Source: Thermosyntropha sp. (GTDB lineage Bacteria; Bacillota; Syntrophomonadia; Syntrophomonadales; Syntrophomonadaceae). From it: DNA of 64,000 bases. Made by a program: the position numbers and the translations under genes. Under the pieces are notes generated by a model. It searched no databases. It was not told where the DNA came from and saw only the letters and a program-made list of their open reading frames with translations. Of the stretch, positions 5,404-40,115 are shown one piece after another. The stretch is from assembly GCF_017656155.1 (NCBI RefSeq), contig NZ_JACDOH010000002.1, positions 248,001 to 312,000 of the forward strand. Direction: 5' to 3'. Position 1 is the first letter of the stretch. Each line of letters starts with the position of its first letter.

Positions 5404-6093
5404 TTATCTTTTTTCAATAAGATTAATCACATACTTTAAAGCTGTTTCTAAATCTCTCTTTACGATTATATTATTAAAATCTACCCCTAGCTTAACTAAA
5501 GTATGAGCAATATCAGGCTTTATTCCTGTAATTACTACATCTGCGCCTAAAAATCTAACTGCCTTTATCATTTCCATTAAAAACCCGCCAACCACTGTAT
5601 CAATATAAGGTACTCCAGTAACATCTAATATGACATATTTAGCTTTATTAGCATCTATAAAAAGCAACAACTTTTCTGCCATAGCCTGGGCCCGCTCACT
5701 ATCCAGAGTACCAATAAGAGGAGTTAAAACTATATCATGCCAAATTCTAATAATAGGGGTAGCAAGTTCAGTCAATGCTTCCTTAACTTCTCGCAAATTA
5801 TTTTCTTTTTCCAAACAATATTCATTTTTAATATATATTATATACTTGAGCAGATCTTCTTTTGGAAAACCTTCTATCTTATCGGTTATAATATCTAAAG
5901 CACATAAAACCTCATCTATTTTCATAACTTCCAAAATTTTTTCTAAACTTTCTTTTATAGAGTTATGATATATATCACTATCTCCATATTCAGCTACTGA
6001 AATCAAAAGTTCTTCCCATATTTTTTCATGTCCAAATCTTTCTTGTAATAATTCCAAATAATTTGATAGATTTTTCAGAATCTGCTCTTTCAT
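5404..6093 (-). CDS. rsbR: Stressosome sensor protein RsbR
   Basis: The protein has 229 residues. The N-terminal 110 residues are helical and correspond to the variable sensory half of RsbR proteins, which is globin-like in Bacillus subtilis RsbRA. The C-terminal half is a STAS domain. The threonines in PYIDTVVGG and in ITGIKPD match the two phosphorylation sites of the family. The signal sensed cannot be told from sequence. It is the first gene of the operon and starts at an ATG behind AAGGGGG. A TATAAT-like box lies about 50 bases upstream without a convincing -35 element. Only one RsbR is present here, so any other sensor paralogues would have to be encoded elsewhere. Confidence 0.9.
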   Translation of the reverse strand: MKEQILKNLSNYLELLQERFGHEKIWEELLISVAEYGDSDIYHNSIKESLEKILEVMKIDEVLCALDIITDKIEGFPKEDLLKYIIYIKNEYCLEKENNLREVKEALTELATPIIRIWHDIVLTPLIGTLDSERAQAMAEKLLLFIDANKAKYVILDVTGVPYIDTVVGGFLMEMIKAVRFLGADVVITGIKPDIAHTLVKLGVDFNNIIVKRDLETALKYVINLIEKR

Positions 6094-6567
6094 TAAAATA
6101 AATCCCCCTTGTTTTAAAAATCATATTTTATTCTTAATTATATAGCTATTTTAGCATAAATTCGACAAGGATTATATTTTTTCCTTCGGGATGCTTTAAA
6201 AATTGAACCTTGTTCCAGGTTAAAGATAATCCTTGATACCTATCTGTTCTGCTGAACATCGCATATGGTATACTGGGAAACAAGTAATTACACAAACAAG
6301 TTTCGTTGTTCCCATGTACTCGGCAAATGTGATTACCCATTTGGTTCTTCGTGGTGTTCCAGCAGTAATTATGAACTAGTAGTTAAGACAAAGGCAAAAG
6401 ATGATCCACGATTGTTCAGTACCACCTTATTGAAGTATTAGCACTCTCAACCGTAGTTGTATCCACCCTTAAAGACCATGAAGACAAATTCCTTCCTAAT
6501 TTGATGCAAAAAGCTGAATAAAAAATATCCTGCTCCTGGGGAAGTTTTACTAGGAGCAGGACAAGCC
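6094..6567. other. 474-bp intergenic stretch with decayed coding traces
   Basis: No convincing gene. Short plus-strand fragments read like protein pieces broken by stops: MYSANVITHLVLRGVPAVI from 6313, and STLKDHEDKFLPNLMQKAE ending at about 6522. A 64-residue minus-strand frame at 6146-6340 resembles nothing I know. The stretch may be the remains of a lost gene or element between the CoA-transferase and the stressosome operon. The terminator of the CoA-transferase gene occupies its last part. Confidence 0.4.
6521..6561 (-). terminator. Rho-independent terminator after the CoA-transferase
   Basis: A perfect ten-base inverted repeat, TCCTGCTCCT and AGGAGCAGGA, encloses a 14-base loop and is followed on the minus strand by TATTTTTTATT. 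It lies just after the stop codon of the CoA-transferase gene. Confidence 0.85.
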
Positions 6568-15472: not shown

Positions 15473-18400
15473 ACTTCAATTCCTCTTAGGTAGGCTAAAA
15501 ACGATGAGCTGATGGCCTTTATCAAAAAAGCGAAGTGAGTTTCAATTCCTCTTAGGTAGGCTAAAAACCAACTAGCCTTACAAGCGCAAGAAGAGCATCG
15601 AGGTTTCAATTCCTCTTAGGTAGGCTAAAAACCAGATACAGTTCTTCGTCAAAACTGTATGCCTCTTCGTTTCAATTCCTCTTAGGTAGGCTAAAAACCA
15701 CTCAGCGTCACCCCCCATCTGTTTGGGTGGCCCTAGTTTCAATTCCTCTTAGGTAGGCTAAAAACATATGTTTCAATGGGTTTTTTCAACCCCCTAGAAG
15801 GTTTCAATTCCTCTTAGGTAGGCTAAAAACCAAAAAGGTTTTGAACAAGCTGAAAGCGAGATTGAGTTTCAATTCCTCTTAGGTAGGCTAAAAACTCGTG
15901 GTTACGAAAATTTGATAATAAAAAAGAATTGTTTCAATTCCTCTTAGGTAGGCTAAAAACGAATATTTAAAGACTCTCCATAATTATTTAATGCTTGGTT
16001 TCAATTCCTCTTAGGTAGGCTAAAAACGAATATTTAAAGACTCTCCATAATTATTTAATGCTTGGTTTCAATTCCTCTTAGGTAGGCTAAAAACTACGTT
16101 AATGCCAAAGCTGGCATGATGGAAAATATGTTTCAATTCCTCTTAGGTAGGCTAAAAACTATTATCAATCCTTGGATTGTTCACAATCCAAGAATGGTTT
16201 CAATTCCTCTTAGGTAGGCTAAAAACGCTTCGCTTTAGCTGCGTATTGGGAATACCTAAACAGTTTCAATTCCTCTTAGGTAGGCTAAAAACCAAAATAA
16301 GCCATCCCTAAAAGTTTAACTAAATTCTCGTTTCAATTCCTCTTAGGTAGGCTAAAAACTTTCAATTTACTCCCTCCTTACTGCTCTTCAGAAGCATGTT
16401 TCAATTCCTCTTAGGTAGGCTAAAAACGTAGCATGCTAAAACTAATCCTGGAAAACCAGTATGTTTCAATTCCTCTTAGGTAGGCTAAAAACAATATGGC
16501 CTCCTTATGTCGTCATTGCCGACTTCATAGTTTCAATTCCTCTTAGGTAGGCTAAAAACTTTTCTTCGGGGTTCCATCTGCATCCCATCTGCTTGTTTCA
16601 ATTCCTCTTAGGTAGGCTAAAAACGTTCTTTGTCCAGCATTCTGAATATCTGGAAACCTTGTTTCAATTCCTCTTAGGTAGGCTAAAAACGGGAAAAGTT
16701 AATCTCAACGATCTGGAACGTGCAGTGTTTCAATTCCTCTTAGGTAGGCTAAAAACTGAAAAAATTAGGTTTGCCTGAAACGGATTTAATTTGTTTCAAT
16801 TCCTCTTAGGTAGGCTAAAAACTTGAATCAGGGGATAATTTTCAAGTATTGTTAGGTAAGTTTCAATTCCTCTTAGGTAGGCTAAAAACCCTCTATGCCA
16901 CCCATTTGCCACCTGTAAGGGGTCGGGTTTCAATTCCTCTTAGGTAGGCTAAAAACACCTGCGCCAGCTTTTCACCTTCGCCACCAAATTTAGTTTCAAT
17001 TCCTCTTAGGTAGGCTAAAAACTGCTGAGAAAATCGTTATGATGATGGGATTATCCAGGTTTCAATTCCTCTTAGGTAGGCTAAAAACCAGAAGAAGAGC
17101 GACTATTAGCGAACCCTGGTTATCAGGGTTTCAATTCCTCTTAGGTAGGCTAAAAACAAATCAGAAACCCAGAAAGAAGCGTCAGGAGAAAAAGTTTCAA
17201 TTCCTCTTAGGTAGGCTAAAAACTTTCCTCCCTTCCAATATCGGACGTATGCAAAAAGCGGTTTCAATTCCTCTTAGGTAGGCTAAAAACATGCTGATGA
17301 ATTCTATGTAAAAGAGAAAGGGGAAGTTTCAATTCCTCTTAGGTAGGCTAAAAACGTAGCCTGATACCGTCGTGCCCAGTAATTGGCTACGTTTCAATTC
17401 CTCTTAGGTAGGCTAAAAACTAAAAGAAAGGATATTATATGATGATGTTTTTAGACAGTTTCAATTCCTCTTAGGTAGGCTAAAAACATAGTTATATAAA
17501 CAGTAAAAAATCTGATAAAAATAGGTTTCAATTCCTCTTAGGTAGGCTAAAAACTAATTTCGCTGTTATATGCTCTTACATATATAGTATGTTTCAATTC
17601 CTCTTAGGTAGGCTAAAAACCAGAAAAAAAATGTATAAAAAAAAACAGAAACGCGAGTTTCAATTCCTCTTAGGTAGGCTAAAAACGAAATTCTACCACC
17701 CATACTAGCTGCAACTGTACCAGTTTCAATTCCTCTTAGGTAGGCTAAAAACTACAAAAACAGAAAAACCTATTGTTCTACCAGTTATGTTTCAATTCCT
17801 CTTAGGTAGGCTAAAAACCCTGCACGCCCGCTAGGATTTACAGTTTGTCCTACGTTTCAATTCCTCTTAGGTAGGCTAAAAACGTAGCGATTTTGGCATA
17901 CAGAACGGCAGCATAACAGGTTTCAATTCCTCTTAGGTAGGCTAAAAACTGGTCATAGTTCTCAATCCACATATATAAGTACGATGAAGTTTCAATTCCT
18001 CTTAGGTAGGCTAAAAACTGAGAGTATCCTTAAATTTAATAGCCGCTCCGTAGTTTCAATTCCTCTTAGGTAGGCTAAAAACTGTGGCCGCATTGAAAAT
18101 GAATTAGTTTTCGAATGGGGTTTCAATTCCTCTTAGGTAGGCTAAAAACATTCTTCCGGTATTTCATCAATGGAAAATATTTTCAGTTTCAATTCCTCTT
18201 AGGTAGGCTAAAAACTCTGTCCGGCATTTTTTATTTTGCTTGCTTTTTTGGGTTTCAATTCCTCTTAGGTAGGCTAAAAACATATATGTCTCCACTCTCT
18301 TAAATTAGCAGTAACTAGTTTCAATTCCTCTTAGGTAGGCTAAAAACAATACTAATAAACCTGAAATTAGTCTAGAAGATTAGTTTCAATTCCTCTTAGG

Positions 18401-21400
18401 TAGGCTAAAAACAACGTATCATGTCAAGTATTGCCAGAAAAAAAAAGTAGTTTCAATTCCTCTTAGGTAGGCTAAAAACACAATCCCGACAGAAACAAAT
18501 ACTGGAGAAAGAGAGTTTCAATTCCTCTTAGGTAGGCTAAAAACTTAAATGAAATTCATACTATTTTAACTAAAGGAGGGTTTCAATTCCTCTTAGGTAG
18601 GCTAAAAACAAGTTCCCGGTGCGGGAAATGGCAGACCGGGGGTTAAGTTTCAATTCCTCTTAGGTAGGCTAAAAACGAGCTCGTTATAGTCTTTGTATTT
18701 TTCTCTTTCACGCTTGTTTCAATTCCTCTTAGGTAGGCTAAAAACAAAACCCGCTCACGCCGCCGAACAGCGCGATAAACATGTTTCAATTCCTCTTAGG
18801 TAGGCTAAAAACTATTCGTCCTGCATCCGAATATATTCCTGTAGATGGTTTCAATTCCTCTTAGGTAGGCTAAAAACGAAAGAGCATTAGATAGGCTGCC
18901 GGAAACACACCGGGTTTCAATTCCTCTTAGGTAGGCTAAAAACTAGATACAGACAATGGTAATCTATATGCCTCCCCTCGTTTCAATTCCTCTTAGGTAG
19001 GCTAAAAACAAAAACCTTTTTGAACAGAATCTGCTCCGCTGGAAAGTTTCAATTCCTCTTAGGTAGGCTAAAAACATATATGTCTCCACTCTCTTAAATT
19101 AGCAGTAACTAGTTTCAATTCCTCTTAGGTAGGCTAAAAACAATACTAATAAACCTGAAATTAGTCTAGAAGATTAGTTTCAATTCCTCTTAGGTAGGCT
19201 AAAAACGAAGATAGTGTAGAAGATAAGGGTTTTTGAGAAAAGTTTCAATTCCTCTTAGGTAGGCTAAAAACCACCGAAACCTCACTCTCAGGAGAAACCT
19301 CCTGAGAAGGTTTCAATTCCTCTTAGGTAGGCTAAAAACCTGGATGAAATGCAGGAACACTGGCGTTCTTTCTAGTTTCAATTCCTCTTAGGTAGGCTAA
19401 AAACCCACTTAGTGGAATCATATTCATTCTGAATTTCATGTTTCAATTCCTCTTAGGTAGGCTAAAAACCAGGTATTTTCCTGAAAATCCAGTTCGCCAA
19501 AGATAGTTTCAATTCCTCTTAGGTAGGCTAAAAACTCATGTCCATATTGGCATAAGATTTACGGTTATGCAGGTTTCAATTCCTCTTAGGTAGGCTAAAA
19601 ACACTTATATCCAGTATAACCTGAATAATGCTAAAAAAGTTTCAATTCCTCTTAGGTAGGCTAAAAACGAGTTTTCCGTTAAATACGGTATAAGTATTAA
19701 TTGTTTCAATTCCTCTTAGGTAGGCTAAAAACATATACATTATTAAGTATCCATTCCGCCCGCACAGCGTTTCAATTCCTCTTAGGTAGGCTAAAAACTT
19801 GGCTAAAATTACAACATATATCCCATACACATCATTGTTTCAATTCCTCTTAGGTAGGCTAAAAACAAGGTAGTGAAATATGAACATTGCTTTTGATATA
19901 GCGTTTCAATTCCTCTTAGGTAGGCTAAAAACCAAGAACCATCCACATCATAAACAGGAGTTCCATCCGAGTTTCAATTCCTCTTAGGTAGGCTAAAAAC
20001 CAGTGCTTTCACAGTATTGGGGTGCAGCTTGTGCCATCGCGTTTCAATTCCTCTTAGGTAGGCTAAAAACGGAGATTTCAAAGTCCTAATTACTTCCCCA
20101 TTTTCTGGTTTCAATTCCTCTTAGGTAGGCTAAAAACAGCCTCCCTTCTCTTTCGGTTAAAAGCAGCCAAACCCAGTTTCAATTCCTCTTAGGTAGGCTA
20201 AAAACCATTTCTTTTTTGTTTTGCCTAGTATCTGTTATACGTTTCAATTCCTCTTAGGTAGGCTAAAAACTTATTACATTGAAACTGTTAATGCGACAGA
20301 GGCTTAGTTTCAATTCCTCTTAGGTAGGCTAAAAACTTTATAGATTCACCTGTAAAACAAAATACTTTATCCACGTTTCAATTCCTCTTAGGTAGGCTAA
20401 AAACAGGATTGTCAACTATGAGGATGCCGTTGTCATCGGTGTTTCAATTCCTCTTAGGTAGGCTAAAAACTCGAGCTGTACGTGCCAAGTTTTCTTTTAT
20501 CTGTTCGTTTCAATTCCTCTTAGGTAGGCTAAAAACTAATAAGGTTAATGCCTGGGTTAATGAGGAAATATGTTTCAATTCCTCTTAGGTAGGCTAAAAA
20601 CCACTAGAATTATTCAACGATTGCGAAAGGTAATTGCGTTTCAATTCCTCTTAGGTAGGCTAAAAACCATATCTGTTCCTACCCAAACTATAGAAGGTGC
20701 TCCGTTTCAATTCCTCTTAGGTAGGCTAAAAACGAAGGAATTAGAATAACCTCATCCCCCGGCTTAAGCTGTTTCAATTCCTCTTAGGTAGGCTAAAAAC
20801 TATATGATGGAGATACTGGTGCTGTTGATGAGATTCTAGTTTCAATTCCTCTTAGGTAGGCTAAAAACCCAGAACATATTATTGGACAATTTCCGTTTTC
20901 TTGACGTTTCAATTCCTCTTAGGTAGGCTAAAAACCTATAATGATAATTCCTTTATTCAGGTATAAAGAAAAGTTTCAATTCCTCTTAGGTAGGCTAAAA
21001 ACAAAAGGAGGAATTTAAATGGCCTTTTCTCATGGTTCGTTTCAATTCCTCTTAGGTAGGCTAAAAACGGGATTGGAGAACAATATACCGAAATTTGAGG
21101 CAGCATGTTTCAATTCCTCTTAGGTAGGCTAAAAACTCATATGTTTCTTTTTCTTATCACAATATTTTCTAGTTTCAATTCCTCTTAGGTAGGCTAAAAA
21201 CCAGGAATGGCGGATTTGAGACAGCATTCCAACCCGCAGGGTTTCAATTCCTCTTAGGTAGGCTAAAAACAAACCGGTATTAAAAAACGGTTCTCGAAAT
21301 TCTTCCAGTTTCAATTCCTCTTAGGTAGGCTAAAAACTATTCGTCCTGCATCCGAATATATTCCTGTAGATGGTTTCAATTCCTCTTAGGTAGGCTAAAA

Positions 21401-22205
21401 ACGAAAGAGCATTAGATAGGCTGCCGGAAACACACCGGGTTTCAATTCCTCTTAGGTAGGCTAAAAACTAGATACAGACAATGGTAATCTATATGCCTCC
21501 CCTCGTTTCAATTCCTCTTAGGTAGGCTAAAAACAAAAACCTTTTTGAACAGAATCTGCTCCGCTGGAAAGTTTCAATTCCTCTTAGGTAGGCTAAAAAC
21601 CATCTTCTGAAACTTCTTTGGCAACAGGCATCGGAATGTTTCAATTCCTCTTAGGTAGGCTAAAAACTGAGGATTTGCCGGATTATCAACCAGGTCTATT
21701 TTTTTGTTTCAATTCCTCTTAGGTAGGCTAAAAACTAGCCTAGGGACGCCTTTTCTTATTGATTTTCACAGTTTCAATTCCTCTTAGGTAGGCTAAAAAC
21801 CCAAAGCTGCAAGAGAACGGCTCACAAAGCAAGCAACTGGTTTCAATTCCTCTTAGGTAGGCTAAAAACAGGAAAGAGACCAAAAAAGAGGAGAGGGGAA
21901 TAAATGAGTTTCAATTCCTCTTAGGTAGGCTAAAAACCGAATTGGAGCGAATATCAACAGGAAAATGGACTAAGTTTCAATTCCTCTTAGGTAGGCTAAA
22001 AACATCAATCCCATCCCCTTTTTCTTGGAACGAATGAAAAGTTTCAATTCCTCTTAGGTAGGCTAAAAACTCGCCGCCAAAAACAAATTCATAGTTTTTG
22101 AAACCAAAGTTTCAATTCCTCTTAGGTAGGCTAAAAACTCTAAGTCTTCTTCGTCAATCATGTCGCCGTGTTTATGTTTCAATTCCTCTTAGGTAGGCTA
22201 AAAAC
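15473..22205 (-). CRISPR. Type I-B CRISPR array: 102 repeats, 101 spacers
   Basis: The 30-base repeat reads, on the plus strand, GTTTCAATTCC, then TCTTAGGTA, then GGCTAAAAAC. Counting every copy gives 102 repeats. Start-to-start distances are 64-70 bases, so spacers are 34-40 bases. On the minus strand the repeat ends ATTGAAAC, the usual 5' handle of type I-B crRNAs. A leader promoter right of 22205 also points leftward, so the array reads from high to low coordinates and the oldest spacers are at the left. The leftmost repeat starts AC instead of GT, the terminal decay expected at the distal end; the other copies I checked look identical. Seven spacers are second copies of others, leaving 94 distinct. 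Several spacers include a ribosome site plus ATG (for example near 21002-21038 and 21870-21907), as expected of DNA taken from phage genes. Confidence 0.98.
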
Positions 22206-22266
22206 CAATTAAACATCCCATAAATTCAAGCTTTTACCCTTAACCATATTCACCTATTTTAGTCTA

Positions 22267-22295
22267 ATTTTAATAACAAAATCCCTGTATGTCAA
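22267..22295 (-). promoter_or_regulatory. CRISPR leader promoter
   Basis: On the minus strand TTGACA (22295-22290) and TAAAAT (22272-22267) are separated by exactly 17 bases. Transcription would start near 22260 and enter the first repeat after about 55 bases. This fixes the direction of pre-crRNA synthesis. Confidence 0.8.
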
Positions 22296-22310
22296 GGTTT
22301 TTAGGCAAAT

Positions 22311-22366
22311 AAAATTGTCGTCGACCCCCAGGGGTTTTTACATTATTGGAGGTCGACGACAATTTT
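22311..22366. repeat. Perfect 16-bp inverted repeat in the CRISPR leader / cas2 tail
   Basis: AAAATTGTCGTCGACC at 22311-22326 and GGTCGACGACAATTTT at 22351-22366 are exact complements around a 24-base loop. The right arm lies in the 3' end of the cas2 remnant and the left arm lies 15 bases upstream of the leader -35 box. On the minus strand the stem is followed by a short T-rich stretch (TTTTATTT counting its last bases), so it may terminate the cas operon. It may also be a leader element for protein binding. Confidence 0.75.
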
Positions 22367-22652
22367 AATGTCCATATTCCTTTTATAAAAATATAAAAAA
22401 GTTTTCTGCTCCGCCTTTTTTACTCTCATCATCTCACACTGGTAATAATTGGTGCTACAAAATATATAAAATATTATCGAATCATGTTCTTCATCTATGA
22501 CTTTTTTTAATTCATATTTTCGTTTACATAAATTGCTTTCGCTCGTTTATCCTTTCAGAATAGAACTTCATCCCAGCAAAGATATTTTCAGGAAAATTTA
22601 AGGCTTTTCCTACTCTTTTTTCTTCCACATCATAGACCATTATGACAAACAT
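22343..22652 (-). pseudogene. cas2: Degenerate cas2
   Basis: The start at ATG 22652 reads MFVIMVYDVEEKRVGKAL, an excellent Cas2 N-terminus carrying the conserved aspartate. The frame then diverges and stops after 42 residues at TAA. A second frame contains KYLCWDEVLF, resembling the Cas2 KYLxWVQNSVFEG segment. A third frame, from about 22523 to 22343, reads RKYELKKVIDEEHDSIIFY and then IFCSTNYYQ, the normal Cas2 C-terminal half. At least two or three small indels are needed to restore one frame. The total span of 310 bp is about the length of a Cas2 gene. It follows cas1 by 19 bases, the expected place. I infer loss of function; sequencing error at several places seems less likely. Confidence 0.85.
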
Positions 22653-22671: not shown

Positions 22672-23664
22672 CTACCAGCGTGAAACAAAAGGTTCATACT
22701 CTTTTTCTCCCATCAGATGTTTTTCCAGTTTATAAAGTTCCAGCCTTATAAGCCGCCTATAAGATACTTCGCGTCCCAGTTCTCTATGTTTTATAGTAGT
22801 TTTTATTTTTTCTTCCCATTCCTGTAAAAATAACTTGCGACCGTTATCGTTGAGCAAAATGCTGTCCAGTTTGCTATCAAAATGGGATGCCTTAAGCATA
22901 TTACGGCCTAATAAACTAAAGATAATCCTATCTACCAGTATAGGTTTAAAAACTTCTGCCACATCAAGATTAAGAGTAAATCTCCTGAAATTGGTAGTAT
23001 GTAAATATCCTATACGCGGGTCAAGATGTGTTTTATAGATTTCGCTTAAAACTGCGGTATAAAGTATAGTATTACCAAAGCTGATCAGTGCATTTATCCG
23101 GTCTCTGGGAGGTCTGCGATTGCGCCCATTAAATGTAAACTCAGGTTTGTCAATTATTACATTGAAAGCTTCGTAATAGGTTTCCCTTATATTCCCTTCT
23201 ATAGCCATCAATTCTTCATTAGTAAAAGACCTGTCGATACTTTTTTCAAGTTCCTTTATATGTTCTATTACGTTTTCTAAATCTTTTCCCCGGTTTTGAT
23301 AATACCGCAAGACAGCCAGCATATTATAGACTGCCCCCCGGACAAATTCCCGGGCCAATTTTATCCTTCTTTCTGCATCCAGATAAAATTCAGCCTGTTT
23401 TAATATCATAAAACCAGAATTAAGGTGTTCACGCGGATAATAGCTTCCGGCATAATAGCCGTAATTGTTAAAAAAATGAAGTATTATTTCTTTTTGGGTT
23501 ATAAATTCCAGAAACCTTTTATTAAGTGTTACCTCCCCAAATATATAAATTTCTTTTAAATCTTCCACCGGCAGGTATTTTTTGTCTCCCTTAGTTTCAA
23601 AATAAACTGTATTGTCTTTGCGCTTAAATTCTCCATCATTAAAAACATAAATAGTTTTTTTCAT
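22672..23664 (-). CDS. cas1: CRISPR-associated endonuclease Cas1 (type I-B)
   Basis: Cas1 is the integrase that inserts new spacers, normally as a complex with Cas2. The protein starts MKKTIYVFNDGEFKRKDNTV at ATG 23664, with AGGTGATGGG just upstream; an earlier in-frame ATG at 23763 would reach into cas4 and is rejected. The metal-binding residues look intact: the glutamate in AIEGNIRETYY, the histidine in GYLHTTNFRRF and the aspartate in NLDVAEVFKP. At 330 residues it has the usual I-B length. Because cas2 is broken, this Cas1 may lack its local partner. Confidence 0.95.
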   Translation of the reverse strand: MKKTIYVFNDGEFKRKDNTVYFETKGDKKYLPVEDLKEIYIFGEVTLNKRFLEFITQKEIILHFFNNYGYYAGSYYPREHLNSGFMILKQAEFYLDAERRIKLAREFVRGAVYNMLAVLRYYQNRGKDLENVIEHIKELEKSIDRSFTNEELMAIEGNIRETYYEAFNVIIDKPEFTFNGRNRRPPRDRINALISFGNTILYTAVLSEIYKTHLDPRIGYLHTTNFRRFTLNLDVAEVFKPILVDRIIFSLLGRNMLKASHFDSKLDSILLNDNGRKLFLQEWEEKIKTTIKHRELGREVSYRRLIRLELYKLEKHLMGEKEYEPFVSRW

Positions 23665-23683
23665 CCCATCACCTGCTTTTATT

Positions 23684-24181
23684 TTAAGCCCAACAAAATT
23701 CAGTATAAGCACATTTCCTACAATATTTATTTTTCTCCGGAGGTGGTGGCAGGGGGTTAGCAATAATTTTTTCTATTTGCTTGACTGCATTTTTTATTTC
23801 TTTTTCATTTTCTTCATCTAGAATAAACTCTATCTTTTTCCTCTCTTCCGGAATTAAAAGCTCACCTCTGGCTTCTATTCCCATTTCCTTAAGTTGCCAT
23901 AAATAGAACAGCAGCTGTTTCTCTGCACTTTCCACAAAGCGGGAAGATTTTTTTATCTCCCCTACCACCAGATTTTCTCCTTCTCTTCGCATTACATCAA
24001 ATTTCCCGGTAGTTATATCTACCTCTTTCCTTTCCCTTTCATAGCTGGTTTCCCCAATAAGCCTTCCAATCCTTATATTTTCATCTTCCTGATCCGGCTC
24101 CAGGCCATGTGCCAACAGCCAAACCTGCCTCTTACATATATAATAGTACCATATAAGGGTTCCGGTTACATAAAAATCCAT
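23684..24181 (-). CDS. cas4: CRISPR-associated exonuclease Cas4
   Basis: This 165-residue RecB-like nuclease trims prespacers and selects the PAM end during adaptation. It starts MDFYVTGTLIWYYYICKRQ, which holds the first iron-sulfur cysteine. The nuclease core has a conserved aspartate in TGKFDVMRREG and the GEIKKSSRF motif. Three more cysteines close the protein in KYCRKCAYTEFCWA. All four cluster cysteines are present. It lies between cas3 and cas1 with about 20 bases on either side, so one transcript is likely. Confidence 0.95.
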   Translation of the reverse strand: MDFYVTGTLIWYYYICKRQVWLLAHGLEPDQEDENIRIGRLIGETSYERERKEVDITTGKFDVMRREGENLVVGEIKKSSRFVESAEKQLLFYLWQLKEMGIEARGELLIPEERKKIEFILDEENEKEIKNAVKQIEKIIANPLPPPPEKNKYCRKCAYTEFCWA

Positions 24182-24203: not shown

Positions 24204-26537
24204 TTAATACTCCAAAAATGTTTTCTCTAACTCTGAATAATCTAATCCAGTTTCAGTAGAATATTTTATATTAACTATAGGCAGCCTGTACTTATTTTCA
24301 CAAATCCTCCCATTTTTCTGTAATTTCTTGTATTTTCCTAAATTTATCGGAATTTCATATAAACTAATTTTATAAAACTCATTCTTCTCATAAAATTCTT
24401 CCACTAAATCCAAAAACTTAATAGGTATCACACTAACCTTAACAGTTTCAAAATTTCTTGTTTTTTCCTCAGATATAGGCACATCATAAAATAATTCAGC
24501 AATTGCTACCCTTTCATAAACTTTTTCCCCATCTTTATATTCAGAGTCATATATATCATAATCTTTGTAAATTTCATCCATTATATCCAATAAATCTTTT
24601 TCTGTTAATCTTCCCTGCTTTTCTTTAATAATTTCTTTGGTTCGCTCTAGAATATCCTTGCTATTTTTATAGACATAGTTTATTGATACATCAGAAAAAT
24701 CAAAAATTATAAATTCAGAATCATTTTTTTTATAACTTCGATTACATCTACCTGCTCTTTGAATCAAAGAATCTATGGGGGCACACTCACTAAACATAAT
24801 ATCAAAATCTATATCTAATGAAACTTCTACAGCCTGGGTAGCAATGAGTAAATCACAATTTTTTAAATTTTCTTCTGAACCATCTTCCTTTTTTCCTGTC
24901 AATATATCTTCTTTCTTTTTTCGGTCTTTAAGAGTAAATTCAGAATGATAACACATCAATTCTTTATTATCATTTACCAATCTATCTTTCCATTTTTTAT
25001 AGGTTTTCTTGGCAGTTTCAATATCATTTACAATTATTGCTACTCGCTTATTTTTCTTTAAATATGTTTCTACATATTCATCTAATTCTTCAATTTTAAC
25101 ATCAATATACTTCCAATTATTTCTGACCAGACTTAACCTTTCTTCAGCCATAACTATTTGAGGATTTCCTAGTACATTACTAAAGTGTTCGCGTACCGCT
25201 TGGGGGAAGGTTGCGCTCATAATCATTACTCTTCCCCCCAATTTTTTTATCTTTTCCACAGTTTTGGTTATAAGAGCTAGAGTATAGGTATCATAAGCTT
25301 GTATTTCATCAATAACAACGGAAGCGCCTATTAAAGAAAATTCTTTTTGAGTCCAAAAACCTGTATTAAACCCTGTCGAAAGTATCTGATCAATTGTAGA
25401 TATCATAACTGGAAACATAAAAGCTTTTCCACGCAATAACTGTTCCCTTATTAAATCAATTTTTATTTCATTTTCCTCATTTTCTAAAAACAAAAATGAC
25501 TGAACTCCAGAATGCGATATACCACAGGGGGAATCATAAAAATATTCCTCACTTATACGCTTATACAAATTATTAGAAGTAATCATGGTAGGCATTAAAA
25601 AAATTAATTTTCTAAAATCACTGTTAAGAGACCACAAAACAGCAGCCTCCGTTTTTCCAGAACCAGTAGGCGCAACAGCCAAAAGGTCCCCTTTTACTTG
25701 CGAACAAGCTTTTTGAAAAGGTCTTTCTTCATAATTTTTATTCTCTTTTTCAACCTTCTGTCTTATCCTTAAACGCATAGTATCTAAGTCATGATACAAC
25801 CAATAGTTATTTCTCTTTTGCAAATTGGAAGAAGCAGTCCAATCACAATAATGCAATATTCCTTTTAAAATTGAATAAATTTGTCTCCGCTGATTATAAT
25901 TAAACTTATCAGTTATATTAGAAGCTTTAGAGGCTGTTTCTTCCATTACTTTAAAAAAATTCTTTTTATACAAATTAATATCAAAATTAGTATTTTTTAA
26001 GACTTCAACACAAATACCTTCTCTTTTTAAGATGGGCTCTACTATCGAAAAAGCATAGATAATCTTTTCCTGCTCAAATTTAGGCCAAACCTCTCTTAAT
26101 CTTTCACGTAAAAAACTATCCCATTGTTTATCAAGTGTTTTATGGTGTCCGAGTACAGCCCATACTTCATAAGGTAAATATTCTTCCTCACCATTTTTTA
26201 TACGTTTAAGCCACCAATGAAACAAAAGACAAGATGATATAATCTCATGCCTAAAGTTATTTTTATAATCTGGTCTTTCTCCCTTTTCAATCTTTTCCAT
26301 ATTTTCCTGAAAAATATCTAACAATTTACCTGTATCATGAAACAACACACTAATCAGGCTCTTTTGTCTCATAATCTCATAAGGAATATTTATCTCATCA
26401 GCCCAAATTTTTATCAATTTATGGCATGAATCCCATATATCACTCCATATCCTATAGCAATCATTTACATGTTCCTCATAAGACACAAAAGGCTTTGCTC
26501 TATACATGTCATACACCTGCCAAAACTCTTTTTTCAA
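24204..26537 (-). CDS. cas3: CRISPR-associated HD nuclease-helicase Cas3
   Basis: Cas3 is recruited by Cascade and shreds target DNA. The 777-residue protein has both parts. The N-terminal HD nuclease shows VLFHDTGK near residue 67 with further histidines in RHEIISS and VLGHHKT. The superfamily 2 helicase shows Walker A VAPTGSGKTEAA, motif II DEIQ (in VVIDEIQAYD), motif III MSATFP and motif VI QRAGRCNR. All catalytic motifs look intact, so interference is plausible. Its start overlaps the end of cas5 by four bases (ATGA). Confidence 0.95.
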   Translation of the reverse strand: MKKEFWQVYDMYRAKPFVSYEEHVNDCYRIWSDIWDSCHKLIKIWADEINIPYEIMRQKSLISVLFHDTGKLLDIFQENMEKIEKGERPDYKNNFRHEIISSCLLFHWWLKRIKNGEEEYLPYEVWAVLGHHKTLDKQWDSFLRERLREVWPKFEQEKIIYAFSIVEPILKREGICVEVLKNTNFDINLYKKNFFKVMEETASKASNITDKFNYNQRRQIYSILKGILHYCDWTASSNLQKRNNYWLYHDLDTMRLRIRQKVEKENKNYEERPFQKACSQVKGDLLAVAPTGSGKTEAAVLWSLNSDFRKLIFLMPTMITSNNLYKRISEEYFYDSPCGISHSGVQSFLFLENEENEIKIDLIREQLLRGKAFMFPVMISTIDQILSTGFNTGFWTQKEFSLIGASVVIDEIQAYDTYTLALITKTVEKIKKLGGRVMIMSATFPQAVREHFSNVLGNPQIVMAEERLSLVRNNWKYIDVKIEELDEYVETYLKKNKRVAIIVNDIETAKKTYKKWKDRLVNDNKELMCYHSEFTLKDRKKKEDILTGKKEDGSEENLKNCDLLIATQAVEVSLDIDFDIMFSECAPIDSLIQRAGRCNRSYKKNDSEFIIFDFSDVSINYVYKNSKDILERTKEIIKEKQGRLTEKDLLDIMDEIYKDYDIYDSEYKDGEKVYERVAIAELFYDVPISEEKTRNFETVKVSVIPIKFLDLVEEFYEKNEFYKISLYEIPINLGKYKKLQKNGRICENKYRLPIVNIKYSTETGLDYSELEKTFLEY

Positions 26538-27277
26538 GCCAAAGAAAATAAAGGAATTTTAAACTTTTCAAAACAATAAACTTCAGTTTCTTCTTTCAGA
26601 TTTACCCAGCCAGGTAAAAAACTAAAAACCTCATACCTTTCCCCTTTACGCACCTCACCATCAAAGCTATAGTCTACCGGCAGTTTTTTGACAACAGGTG
26701 TACTTAAAATAACATCTAACCTACTCTGCTTTATTTCATCCCAATCTAACCTATAATTATCTTCAATATCCCCCGGAAATAAAACAAAGCCTTCCAACCC
26801 CATACCAGTACTAAACTGTGAAGAATTTAACTTTTCAATCATAAAACATGGACTTACTTCCAATATCTTTACCAAATCATCGCTTGTGCCTATAGTTAAA
26901 CAAAAAACCGGATTCTGAAAAGCCTCTTGTAACTGTTCCAAAACACTTTTATCTTCATTTGCATAAAATACCCACAGACTTATAAATGTTAAAAATTCCC
27001 TGTTAACAATATCTTTTTCTATTTTGTTGCCGCTTTTTATTTTAGAATAATTCCACAAATCAATTCCTTTTCCCCAATGCATACCTGCTGCCCCGGTTTT
27101 TATATTATTCTCCTTAAAAAACTGCAGAACTTCTTTGAAATTTTTTCCTAAGGCAGCTCCAGCCAACCCTACTAAGGTAGAAAAGGGAGGCAAAGGGAGA
27201 CAAGAATGATAAAGCTGTCCCCCTGGGTCTCTAAACGAAGCAAAATCTGCCTTTAAATGTACATAAAAACCGTACAT
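26534..27277 (-). CDS. cas5: Cascade subunit Cas5 (type I-B, Cas5t-like)
   Basis: Cas5 caps the 5' handle of the crRNA in Cascade. The 247-residue protein begins MYGFYVHLKADFASFRDPG and continues into a PPFSTLVGLAGAALGK segment, typical of the RAMP-fold Cas5 of the Tneap/I-B group. The start at 27277 has AGGAG nine bases upstream. It overlaps cas3 by four bases and follows cas7 by 39 bases. Confidence 0.9.
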   Translation of the reverse strand: MYGFYVHLKADFASFRDPGGQLYHSCLPLPPFSTLVGLAGAALGKNFKEVLQFFKENNIKTGAAGMHWGKGIDLWNYSKIKSGNKIEKDIVNREFLTFISLWVFYANEDKSVLEQLQEAFQNPVFCLTIGTSDDLVKILEVSPCFMIEKLNSSQFSTGMGLEGFVLFPGDIEDNYRLDWDEIKQSRLDVILSTPVVKKLPVDYSFDGEVRKGERYEVFSFLPGWVNLKEETEVYCFEKFKIPLFSLA

Positions 27278-27316
27278 AAAGGTTTCTCCTTTCCTGTAAC
27301 CTATTAAGAATAAACC

Positions 27317-28237
27317 TTACTCAGTTTTTTCTCCAAAAATATCATCTATCCACTGTCTCATCTTATCAAAAGCTTGTCCCAAAGTAGCAAACTGTTCATT
27401 ATCTTCCGGGAAAAATCCTTTGCGTTCTCCTATAACATGGTCAATAATTACATATGCAAAATCACTAATTGTTTGATTAATTAAATTAATATCAGGCTTT
27501 CCTTTTTCAATCCTAATACTTTCCATAAAAATAGGATTTTTGACTTTCATCAAGGCTGCACAGACAAATTTGGGAGAAATATCAGTTAAAAATCTGCTCT
27601 GTCTGCCTACTGTCCAAAGATTTTGGACAGCTGTCAACAAAGCTTTTACTCTTTCTGCTTTTTGTTTTGCTTCCAATTCTAATTTATAAAGATCACCTGC
27701 TGTTTTTTCCCCTACTCTGTCTAATTCAATAAGTATAGTCCCTTTATAAAACCCAGAATGAATTTCTGTTTCAAAAATATTGGGATCTCCTCCTGCTTTA
27801 ACAGCCATATAATTAGTTCCGTAATCTAAATCTCCTCTATAAGGTTCTAAAGCAATCAATGGAGAGACTCTTACCGGACTAATTCTTTTAACAGTAGCAG
27901 TATCTGCCTTCATAAAACCAAATAAATCATCATCAATATATTCCTGAGGGTTACACATAGTGGTAGCAGCACCTTTTTTCTGAACCGCAGTGACTCCCTC
28001 AGATAATTTACAGCCTAAAACTGCCAACTGTTCTCTTAAGGCCCTTCTTACTGCCTGTGAAGAACAGTACGGATATTCTTTCCCATCATTCATCTGTATT
28101 TTTTTCAAATTAGTTATATTATCAGCCTCTTTATCTCCTGCATTCAAGGAAGTATAAGATGCCCATGTAAGATAGGATATGGTTAAACATTTGGCATCTT
28201 TCATTTTATTCTCATTATTTTTCATTTCATTTTTCAT
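27317..28237 (-). CDS. cas7: Cascade backbone subunit Cas7 (Cst2/DevR family)
   Basis: Cas7 forms the filament that binds the spacer part of the crRNA. The 306-residue protein has the family opening CLTISYLTWASYTSLNAGD and the YPYCSSQAVRRALREQL segment of the Cst2/DevR branch, which defines the I-B Tneap subtype together with Cst1-like Cas8. The N-terminus is rich in K, N and E. The ATG at 28237 overlaps the cas8 stop by four bases. No truncation is seen. Confidence 0.92.
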   Translation of the reverse strand: MKNEMKNNENKMKDAKCLTISYLTWASYTSLNAGDKEADNITNLKKIQMNDGKEYPYCSSQAVRRALREQLAVLGCKLSEGVTAVQKKGAATTMCNPQEYIDDDLFGFMKADTATVKRISPVRVSPLIALEPYRGDLDYGTNYMAVKAGGDPNIFETEIHSGFYKGTILIELDRVGEKTAGDLYKLELEAKQKAERVKALLTAVQNLWTVGRQSRFLTDISPKFVCAALMKVKNPIFMESIRIEKGKPDINLINQTISDFAYVIIDHVIGERKGFFPEDNEQFATLGQAFDKMRQWIDDIFGEKTE

Positions 28238-29934
28238 TTCTGTATGCCCCCTTCTTCTTTATCAGATTTATCAGATTTAGGTAATAAAGAATTATAAACA
28301 TTTAAAGCGCCTAAAACACAATAAGCCTTAAATTCTTCAAAAGGAACCTCTTCAAGAAGACCTCCTTCTATATCTTTGGAAGTAATAAGCCCATATCTCA
28401 TCTGCAAATTATTAATTTGATTCAAAAAATCTTCCTTGGTTCGGCTTTTACGTAAAGCATACAAATCTCCTTTTATTCTCTTTATATCCGTTTCAAGCTT
28501 TACTGTTCCTTCTTCTAACAACTTTTCTTTTGCACGCATCACGATCGATTTGCCTAAATTTACAGCTTTTTGTACCTGCTCACTGTTCATTTTTACACCT
28601 CCTATTTCCATTTCGTAAAGCATTAAAAAATCTAACAAAGCCTTTAAGTACCCCCCTTCCCGCATAGATACATAAAAAGCAAAATCCTCCGCATCTAATA
28701 AAACACTTTTTTTATACAGAACTCTTCTAAAAAAATAATCGCGGAAATAAGAATATCTGGTATTCTTTAATCCCCCTATATATAAGCTATCAAATAGTAA
28801 TTTGGGAAAATTATAATCATTCTTATCTACCAGCAAATGTAACAACCTAAAAATATAGGCAGTATCATTGTAAAAAATTACATTATTAGTTTTAAAAGTA
28901 TCTCTTTTACTTTCAACAAAAAGCAAAACTATTTGTACAGGAGCATTTGATAACGAAAAAGCAAGTAGTTCATCTAATGAAAATTCATTTTCTTTCCTTA
29001 AAATTTTGTATGCCTGATAATAAAAAGCCCATAAAAATTCATAAGGATATTGGGAATAAAGCAAAGGTGAATTATCGTCCATCCTCAAATTAGTCCAAAA
29101 AGTTTCTTCATTCATTAATCTCATATGAGAAGTAAATCCAATTTTTTCATTTACTTGAAATAATTTTTTTAAATTTGAAGAACTAACCTGTACTATAAAT
29201 AAAGAATCAGATGTTTTTTTATAAGTTGCCGCCTCTACAGCAAAATGTCCCAACAAATCGCACTCCCAACATATCTGTGCAGGATTCTTTCCTTGGGAAT
29301 TAAATGACCTGGTAGCAGTTCCACTGGCAAATAGAAGAAAAGAAGGCTGGCTTACCTCATAACACTTAAAACTTTTTTGTCCACACACAGAACAAACTTT
29401 TAATCTTTCTCTCCCTGTTCTTACAGGTAAAATGTCGATTTTTCTGTGACAAAAAGGTTCTTCAAATAAAACCTTTTTTTGTTTGCCCCAAAGTTCTGCT
29501 TTATCGTTTTCCTTCAAAAAGTCTTCCACTCTTTTTCGCAACTTGGAATCAGATATTTCTTCAATAGGAACAGCATGAGTTTTACCCCAACTACTACCTT
29601 TGATAAACAATGCAGGTATCGGGGTAGGATTCTTTTTTGGTTTCAACAAAATTTGATCCTTATCCAAATCATAGAAAACCAACACTGGATTTTCTTTTTG
29701 CTTTTTATCAGATACATTCCAATATCGGCTAGCCAATTCTTCATAACTTTCACTCAATAAATTCCTTAATTTATCTTCATTATCGTACTCAAACTCTAAT
29801 CCATCATTCACCAATTTAACCCCTATACCATACTTTGCTTCTAGCTGTAATTCCTTAATTATGTTGTATAAACCGGCTATACCTGCATCAAACCACCAAT
29901 GCTTGCGAACATAAATCTTGTACAATTTTGACAT
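28234..29934 (-). CDS. cas8b: Cascade large subunit Cas8b (Cst1-like)
   Basis: This 566-residue protein sits in the large-subunit position between cas6 and cas7. It starts MSKLYKIYVRKHWWFDAGIAG, as do Cst1-type Cas8b proteins. A zinc-finger pair, CSVCG and CWEC, lies in its middle third. Cas8b recognises the PAM and recruits Cas3. A charged, low-complexity C-terminus ends with KSDKSDKEEGG. The start has AGGAGG upstream, 23 bases after cas6. Confidence 0.88.
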   Translation of the reverse strand: MSKLYKIYVRKHWWFDAGIAGLYNIIKELQLEAKYGIGVKLVNDGLEFEYDNEDKLRNLLSESYEELASRYWNVSDKKQKENPVLVFYDLDKDQILLKPKKNPTPIPALFIKGSSWGKTHAVPIEEISDSKLRKRVEDFLKENDKAELWGKQKKVLFEEPFCHRKIDILPVRTGRERLKVCSVCGQKSFKCYEVSQPSFLLFASGTATRSFNSQGKNPAQICWECDLLGHFAVEAATYKKTSDSLFIVQVSSSNLKKLFQVNEKIGFTSHMRLMNEETFWTNLRMDDNSPLLYSQYPYEFLWAFYYQAYKILRKENEFSLDELLAFSLSNAPVQIVLLFVESKRDTFKTNNVIFYNDTAYIFRLLHLLVDKNDYNFPKLLFDSLYIGGLKNTRYSYFRDYFFRRVLYKKSVLLDAEDFAFYVSMREGGYLKALLDFLMLYEMEIGGVKMNSEQVQKAVNLGKSIVMRAKEKLLEEGTVKLETDIKRIKGDLYALRKSRTKEDFLNQINNLQMRYGLITSKDIEGGLLEEVPFEEFKAYCVLGALNVYNSLLPKSDKSDKEEGGIQK

Positions 29935-29957: not shown

Positions 29958-30698
29958 TTAATCCTCTACCTCAAAACACCCAAACCCCTGCGAATTCTTG
30001 GAGCCCAGGCCTGTATAATAAGCTATTTCCATCAGTTCCGGATCCCCTACCAGCCAGTAAATTCCGCTATAACCTTTGATGATAAAATCCTTATATTTTA
30101 TGATTTTCAGGAATTTATCCTTGCGGTTGTCACAAGGTATAACCTTTAATTCACCCTTGGAATATTCCCCTTTTAACACCCAGTATTTCTTTTGTAAATT
30201 GCCGAGAATAAGGCTGTCGAAAGGAGTATCCCAGGGTGAAAAATAGGTAGTCCTTTTTTTTCCCTGCACTTCTTCAGTAGTATGTGCTACCACCGGGGAC
30301 AGCATTTTTATGCGCACTTTTTCAGAGAAAACTACCGCCTTAGGTACATTTATCGACTTTAATTCCACACGGTTGCTGCCCAGATGGAGCTCTTCCGCTT
30401 TCATCAAGGTTTCCGCCAGGTCGGTAATAAACGGTTCTAGAGGTGAAGAAACCGTAAGGGCCACCGGTGATTTGAAAATTATATCTCCTTTCTCCTTGTT
30501 TAATCTGAATTCTCCTCTTAAACTAGAATAAGTAAAAAGTTTGAAACGCCTTTTCTGGTAGCTGAACCCCTCTTGATGCAAAAATTCCCGGTAATCACTG
30601 TCTGATATGTTTTTGTAAAGAAAACCCTGTAAAATATGATGATAGTGGACAGGTAAAACTATGTCCTGGTCAGAACCCATAGTAATGGTAATACGCAT
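29958..30698 (-). CDS. cas6: CRISPR RNA endoribonuclease Cas6
   Basis: Cas6 cuts the repeat RNA of the array to yield crRNAs with the ATTGAAAC handle. The 247-residue protein begins MRITITMGSDQDIVLPVHYH; a histidine in YHHILQGFLY is at the usual catalytic place. It ends with the glycine-rich GLGSKNSQGFGCFEV motif. I chose the ATG at 30698, about ten bases after GAGAGG, over upstream ATGs at 30746 and 30716, because family members start with MRI or similar. It is the first gene of the cas operon. Confidence 0.92.
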   Translation of the reverse strand: MRITITMGSDQDIVLPVHYHHILQGFLYKNISDSDYREFLHQEGFSYQKRRFKLFTYSSLRGEFRLNKEKGDIIFKSPVALTVSSPLEPFITDLAETLMKAEELHLGSNRVELKSINVPKAVVFSEKVRIKMLSPVVAHTTEEVQGKKRTTYFSPWDTPFDSLILGNLQKKYWVLKGEYSKGELKVIPCDNRKDKFLKIIKYKDFIIKGYSGIYWLVGDPELMEIAYYTGLGSKNSQGFGCFEVED

Positions 30699-30747
30699 TA
30701 TCTGCCATCCTCTCATCTTAACATCATAATTTCCCTTAAATAGCAAT

Positions 30748-39854: not shown

Positions 39855-40115
39855 TCAACAAAAACCTTTCATCCTCCAGGGACGAAAGGTTTGCTTCCGC
39901 GGTACCACCCTTATAGTGTTTTTAAAAACACCACTCTCATGCTCCATAACGCGAGCAGCGTTCAAACCTACTCGTCAATCTCAACTTTCGGCTTGAAAGC
40001 TCACGGGTGATCTTCAGCCAGAAATCAGCTATCCGGCTTCCACCATCCCGGACTCGCTTAAAGCTGAAAAATCCGCCTACTCTCCCGCTCATCGCCATGA
40101 ATATTCATTTTACCT
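39855..40115 (-). promoter_or_regulatory. T-box riboswitch controlling ileS
   Basis: On the minus strand the leader carries the T-box sequence AGGGTGGTACCGCG at 39911-39898, the part that pairs with the acceptor end of uncharged tRNA. The terminator AACCTTTC/GAAAGGTT follows at about 39860-39892, with T residues after it. Stem I features are visible upstream (GAGAGTA and GGTGGAAGCC). An ATC isoleucine codon at 40011-40009, in the context GAAGATCACC, is the likely specifier. Uncharged tRNA-Ile should stabilise the antiterminator and turn ileS on. Confidence 0.93.

What the first reader, a model, noticed from the sequence alone, without database searches (positions are those of the whole stretch)
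22343..22652. cas2 is a pseudogene next to an intact cas1 and a 101-spacer array
The N-terminal 18 residues and the C-terminal half of Cas2 are clearly readable but lie in different frames with stops between. Interference genes cas3 to cas8 and processing gene cas6 look intact. Spacer acquisition is therefore probably frozen at this locus unless another Cas2 acts in trans. This tells how a large array can persist as a fixed memory.
Basis: seen in the sequence. Interest (0 to 1): 0.65.

Follow-up and report, generated by a model that had tools for sequence, protein, structure and literature searches.

The report
Broken cas2, but array still renewing
A heat-loving bacterium has lost the cas2 gene beside one of its CRISPR memory banks, but the flawless 101-spacer bank and the well-kept cas1 suggest that it went on recording new viruses with a Cas2 made from another place in the genome.

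Summary
In detail: cas2 at 22394-22652 (minus strand) is a real pseudogene, with two single-base deletions, two nonsense codons, a lost stop and many replacements. It lies beside intact cas1 and cas4, an intact I-B interference cassette and a 101-spacer array. The sister species Thermosyntropha lipolytica has the same gene intact.

The reading "frozen memory" is contradicted. (1) Since it broke, cas2 has gathered about 0.13 extra substitutions per site (0.07-0.20), yet 101 full repeats (3030 bases) show none. (2) Cas1 stayed constrained over that period (22 changes seen, about 91 expected if relaxed). (3) The genome holds a second I-B locus with intact cas1 (78%) and an intact cas2 that is 75/87 identical to the sister's. 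(4) Among 76 evaluable related loci, five more lack cas2 beside intact cas1, and in four the genome holds a cas2 elsewhere. In Tepidanaerobacter sp. GT38 the only cas1 and the only cas2 found are unlinked.

Best explanation: Cas2 acts in trans and acquisition continued. Sharing of adaptation proteins is known. The variant here is that Cas2 alone is outsourced while Cas1, leader and array stay. Trans supply is inferred, not shown.

The parts
22394..22652 (-). cas2 pseudogene (start codon kept; two single-base deletions, two nonsense codons, stop lost)
   Evidence: 196 of 259 bases identical to the intact T. lipolytica gene
22317..22360 (-). 44-bp inverted repeat (GTCGTCGACC-N24-GGTCGACGAC) at the outer end of the leader; hairpin extends over about 22310-22367
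   Evidence: RNA fold -32.8 kcal/mol, z -8.4; covariation counts
22206..22316 (-). leader, exactly 111 bp between inverted repeat and first CRISPR repeat, as in the C7 locus and in T. lipolytica
22267..22295 (-). sigma-70-like promoter in the leader: TTGACA-17-TAAAAT, reading into the array
   Evidence: read in the sequence; no expression data
15539..22205 (-). CRISPR array: 101 identical repeats, 100 spacers of 34-40 nt; block duplications of spacers 10-13 = 48-51, 46-47 = 58-59, 93 = 94
15473..15502 (-). degenerate terminal repeat (28 of 30) at the trailer end, giving spacer 101
22672..23763 (-). cas1, intact (I-B type); likely true start at the MKKTIY methionine, about 23667
23684..24181 (-). 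cas4, intact
24204..26537 (-). cas3 (HD nuclease-helicase), intact
26534..27277 (-). cas5 (I-B Tneap type), intact
27317..28237 (-). cas7 (Cst2/DevR), intact
28234..29934 (-). cas8b, intact frame, seen only by PADLOC models
29958..30746 (-). cas6, intact

Best explanation
The window's I-B locus lost its own cas2 well after the split from T. lipolytica, but its adaptation did not stop. Its still-constrained Cas1 (with Cas4) works with a Cas2 supplied in trans, most likely that of the second I-B locus on contig C7. That complex kept inserting spacers behind this locus's leader, so the 101-spacer array is younger than the broken gene. Shown: the pseudogene, intact cas2 copies elsewhere in the genome, no mutation in 101 repeats against heavy decay in cas2, constraint on Cas1, and recurrence in related genomes. 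Inferred: that C7 Cas2 is the partner and that the hybrid complex integrates spacers here.
For: Clock: on the window branch cas2 has 25 changes in 157 first/second codon positions against 22 in 559 for cas1 (Fisher p 1.1e-6); on the sister branch 4 of 136 against 18 of 555 (p = 1). Excess 0.130 substitutions per site (bootstrap 0.067-0.195) predicts 393 (at least 203) changes in 3030 repeat bases if neutral, and still about 20 (at least 10) if only 5% of mutations were tolerated; none is seen. The array is as uniform as arrays beside intact cas2, most of which show 0-3 variants. Partner: C7 Cas2 is 75/87 identical to the sister's intact Cas2, C7 Cas1 78% identical to this Cas1; both leaders are 111 bp with the same inverted repeat (38/44) although otherwise only 46/111 alike. 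Repeats differ at 4 of 30. Recurrence: of 80 related loci, 4 end too near cas1, 70 have an open cas2 next to cas1 (two of them cut by a contig end), 1 has cas2 displaced 3.9 kb, 5 lack it; 4 of those 5 genomes hold a cas2 elsewhere. In G062 (isolate, draft) the search found 1 cas1 and 1 cas2, on different contigs; the array beside that cas1 has 62 of 65 repeats identical. In G065 (MAG) a lone cas2 sits beside an array with the same repeat as the cas2-less cas1 locus. Weak: spacer length falls from the leader end to the far end (Spearman p 0.023, 93 distinct); the leader-proximal 33 match C7 lengths (p 0.93), the rest differ (p 0.042).
Against: No test of the protein complex. C7 repeats differ at 4 of 30 positions and leader cores are unlike, so C7 Cas1-Cas2 as a whole may not accept this array; only the Cas2 subunit need be shared, which is untested. 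No exact spacer is shared between the two arrays. Repeats are functional, so the neutral expectation overstates their decay. The spacer-length trend was found by looking and is marginal; other cut points (20, 25, 50 spacers) gave p 0.066, 0.084 and 0.179. Array renewal could also come by recombination from strains with an intact cas2. G004 (closed genome) has one cas2 match with one internal stop and five uniform arrays, so uniform repeats alone do not prove acquisition after the break where a lesion is young.
Confidence: 0.68

Rival explanations
1. Frozen memory: since cas2 broke, no spacer has been added and the array persists unchanged, used only for interference.
For: cas2 is truly broken in cis; interference genes are intact and the leader has a promoter-like site. 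Parts of two leader-end spacers found no viral match, which is no evidence either way.
Against: No change in 3030 repeat bases against about 0.13 substitutions per site in cas2; Cas1 still constrained; two intact cas2 genes in the genome.
Confidence: 0.08
2. The array, with or without its leader, was renewed by homologous recombination from conspecific cells that still have an intact cas2, so this cell line itself does not acquire.
For: The locus is a mosaic: its cas8-7-5-3 cassette differs from that of T. lipolytica while the flanking cas6 and cas4-cas1 are orthologous. Array blocks are duplicated, so recombination occurs.
Against: Does not explain constraint on Cas1 over the decay period nor the unlinked sole cas1 and cas2 of G062.
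Confidence: 0.15
3. Cas1 is kept for another task (for example DNA repair, or processing with Cas4), and array uniformity comes from strong selection on, or recombination between, repeats.
For: Cas1 constraint alone does not prove adaptation.
Against: More than 95% of repeat mutations would have to be purged in each of 101 copies; the far terminal repeat is degenerate, as expected at the old end. The leader keeps its inverted repeat and exact length.
Confidence: 0.08

Closest known systems
Spacer acquisition in trans by shared Cas1-Cas2 among co-occurring CRISPR systems (PMC12814883; passages read)
   Same: A locus without full adaptation genes is served by those of another locus in the genome with a similar repeat.
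   Different: The passages tell of systems lacking both cas1 and cas2; here only cas2 is lost, beside a constrained cas1.
Type I-B CRISPR-Cas, Tneap branch (Cst2/DevR Cas7)
   Same: Gene order cas6-cas8b-cas7-cas5-cas3-cas4-cas1-(cas2)-array, repeat ending ATTGAAAC.
   Different: cas2 is a pseudogene.
CRISPR leader motifs and their phasing (Santiago-Frangos 2021, Buyukyoruk 2025: seen only as references in PMC12259127; texts not held)
   Same: Conserved motifs upstream of the first repeat (judged from the titles and one citing passage).
   Different: Whether the 44-bp inverted repeat of this family is already listed there could not be checked.

Membership tests
cas2 pseudogene | Homology to Cas2 with disrupted frame and relaxed constraint | tested here: met
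Type I-B CRISPR-Cas (Tneap) | Cst2/DevR Cas7, Cas5, Cas8b, Cas3, Cas6 and Cas4-Cas1 of I-B type | tested here: met
   Cas5t below its NCBIfam cut-off, Cas8b only by PADLOC
Type I-B CRISPR-Cas (Tneap) | Own working cas2 beside cas1 | tested here: not met
Acquisition in trans | A second intact adaptation gene set in the same genome with a similar repeat and leader | tested here: met
   repeats 26/30 alike, leader length and hairpin alike, leader core 46/111
Acquisition in trans | Spacer gain after loss of the gene in cis | tested here: inconclusive
   inferred from repeat and Cas1 clocks; no strains compared
Acquisition in trans | Physical Cas1-Cas2 hybrid complex active on this leader | not testable with these tools
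   needs protein work; a solved entry (7ei1) holds both a related Cas1 and a related Cas2

The most novel reading that the evidence does not exclude
In this I-B lineage Cas2 is an exchangeable subunit shared across the genome: a locus can drop cas2 again and again and still grow its array, because Cas1 plus a leader with a phased hairpin site decide where spacers go. In the window the handover from own to borrowed Cas2 left a trace as a change in spacer length along the array.
Probability: 0.3. Interest if true: 0.7.

Novelty: new variant of a known kind. Interest (0 to 1): 0.5.

Why it matters
A broken adaptation gene next to an array is easily annotated as a dead or frozen system. Here decay of the gene against decay of the repeats, both in one genome, gives a way to ask whether an array outlived its own adaptation gene. 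If right, it says Cas1 and Cas2 need not come from one operon, which bears on how the integrase finds its array, and it names natural genomes (Tepidanaerobacter sp. GT38, the window's species) in which to test it.

Tried and rejected
Sequencing error as the cause of the broken frame: rejected, too many substitutions and lesions. Phage and plasmid collections searched with the whole array: only one phage with a weak hit (E 0.6, two records of it), and 8 plasmid records, most with many pieces as expected of other CRISPR arrays. Viral contigs: no hit for the consensus of the similar pair C2_97/C7_12, nor for parts of C2_1, C2_2 and C7_2; spacer C2_53 did hit. 'The hairpin is a terminator of cas2': judged unlikely, because it also stands before arrays without cas genes next to them and is kept where cas2 is gone, and it lacks a clean T run. 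dN/dS by a standard program failed (a domain error, which I take for saturation); codon-position counts were used instead. Helical phasing of the hairpin (about 11 bp) is suggestive only: rows are related; L087 and L093 (poor hairpin match) were dropped and L131 (hairpin reversed); many arrays show no such hairpin. In the uniformity table L067 and L076 look variable, apparently because the walk was out of register; they were not used.

Papers: the searches listed no paper whose title or abstract start tells of a cas2 pseudogene beside an intact cas1 served in trans; the library lacks most subscription journals, so this is not proof of absence. Read: passages of PMC12259127 and PMC12814883; of the rest only listings.

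Full report
What is there. The window is contig C2 (248001-312000) of a 2.1-Mb draft genome in 15 contigs. Its nearest relative held is the genome G001, whose contig of 98,715 bases with the matching locus is Thermosyntropha lipolytica DSM 11003; the window is in the same genus. On the minus strand run cas6, cas8b, cas7, cas5, cas3, cas4, cas1, a cas2 pseudogene, a hairpin, a 111-bp leader and an array of 101 spacers.

The pseudogene. Aligned with five intact relatives, cas2 has two single-base deletions, two nonsense codons and no stop, and is 196/259 identical to the intact T. lipolytica gene.

Other adaptation genes. The genome has three cas1 genes and three cas2 matches: the broken one, an intact one on C7 in a second I-B locus (Csh2 type) with 22 spacers, and an intact one on C9 in what I read from the gene set as a type III locus with its own unlike repeat. 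C7 Cas1 is 78% identical to the window's Cas1, and C7 Cas2 is 75/87 identical to the T. lipolytica Cas2 that stands for the lost one.

Is the array frozen? Changes were assigned to the window branch where T. lipolytica and C7 agree. At first and second codon positions cas2 has 25 of 157, cas1 22 of 559; on the sister branch the figures are 4 of 136 and 18 of 555. So cas2, and not cas1, was released from selection, for long enough to add about 0.13 substitutions per site (0.067-0.195). Over the same time 101 repeats of 30 bases gained none; 203 to 393 changes are expected under neutrality and 10 to 20 even if 95% were removed. Had Cas1 been released too, about 91 changes would be expected against 22 seen. 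Alignment near the two deletions is uncertain and may inflate the cas2 count a little. Sister arrays seen (C56, C84, C89 of G001) and a small cas-less array on C4 of the own genome carry CTATGAGG in the repeat (one copy at the end of the C89 stretch differs at another base), the window array CTAAGAGG in all 101 copies and in the degenerate last one: the whole array arose after that change. Arrays beside intact cas2 genes look alike in uniformity.

Recurrence. Of the 80 nearest Cas1 loci in named genomes, 4 end too close to cas1 (L044, L053, L097, L111), 70 have an open cas2 directly after cas1 (L062 and L095 cut by the contig end), L075 has it 3.9 kb on, and 5 lack it: L058 Caloranaerobacter azorensis, L063 Tepidanaerobacter sp. 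GT38, L065 Fervidicola ferrireducens, L077 a Tepidanaerobacteraceae MAG, L087 a WOR-3 MAG. The first four keep the hairpin and leader before the array (the L058 array is masked after its first repeat) and their genomes hold another cas2; in the genomes of L087 and of L053 no cas2 was found. In GT38 one cas1 and one cas2 were found, on different contigs, the cas2 between what look like a CO dehydrogenase and another metabolic gene (labels from my reading of the translations). In the L077 MAG a lone cas2 stands beside a 43-repeat array with the same repeat as the cas2-less locus, with the usual caution for MAGs. In 61 genomes of the order, 38 cas2 matches include two with stops inside: the window's and G004's. 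G004, a one-contig genome whose only cas2 match has one internal stop, is a contrast: a recently broken gene with no second copy, where 'frozen' may really hold.

The leader. A 44-bp inverted repeat stands 111 bp before the first repeat in the window, in C7 and in T. lipolytica, 110-111 bp before each of five arrays in G004, one of them beside cas1, and at about 98-101, 108-112, 120-124, 129-136 and 143-146 bp elsewhere, with single cases at 45 and 200. A period near 11 bp fits better than jittered distances (p 0.0002, the floor of the test; 27 values, not independent). In 36 aligned rows 83.5% of cells pair, 8 of 17 pairs show changes on both sides, and the true register beats all slid ones on the covariation score; 37 of 500 shuffles reach the count of doubly changed pairs, so the covariation is modest. 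Rows were chosen by a pattern that allows two mismatches per arm. I take it as part of the array's leader, not of cas2, and its retention after cas2 is lost fits a leader still in use.

Spacers. Spacer C2_53 matches a gene that looks like a phage scaffold protein (my reading of its translation and neighbours) in a relative's prophage-like region and in four viral contigs, at best 36 of 39, so the array does hold phage memory. C2_97 and C7_12 are 91% alike over 35 bases with the same first base, as if both arrays took the same site of related elements. Spacer length declines from leader to far end (p 0.023), a weak exploratory sign of changed machinery.

Verdict. A true cas2 pseudogene beside an array that was renewed after the gene broke, most likely by this locus's Cas1 with a borrowed Cas2. 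Sharing of adaptation proteins is known; the outsourcing of Cas2 alone, several times over among related loci, is the new variant.

Noticed in passing
window 24204-29934, compared with L040 (T. lipolytica): Interference cassette swap: cas6 (77%), cas4 (85%) and cas1 (86%) are orthologous, but cas3 is only 24% alike and cas5, cas7, cas8 of the window have no match there; T. lipolytica has a C7-like cassette in the same place.
   Followed up: partly
window 22317-22360 and leaders of about 30 related arrays: A conserved 44-bp inverted repeat upstream of I-B arrays, with some paired changes in its arms and distances to the first repeat that cluster about 11 bp apart.
   Followed up: partly
L159 4947-5213 (G004): A one-contig related genome whose only cas2 match has one internal stop, with five arrays: a candidate for a truly frozen system.
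   Followed up: partly
L065 and L136 (Fervidicola ferrireducens): The array beside a lost cas2 has 24 leader-end repeats of one variant and older repeats of another; a second array nearby with its own hairpin has 104 repeats of the leader-end variant.
   Followed up: partly
L163 about 5460-6143 (own genome, contig C4): A fourth, cas-less array of 8 repeats with its own hairpin (gap 136), next to a RAMP-like gene (label from my reading).
   Followed up: no
window 39875-40101: T-box leader on the minus strand.
   Followed up: no
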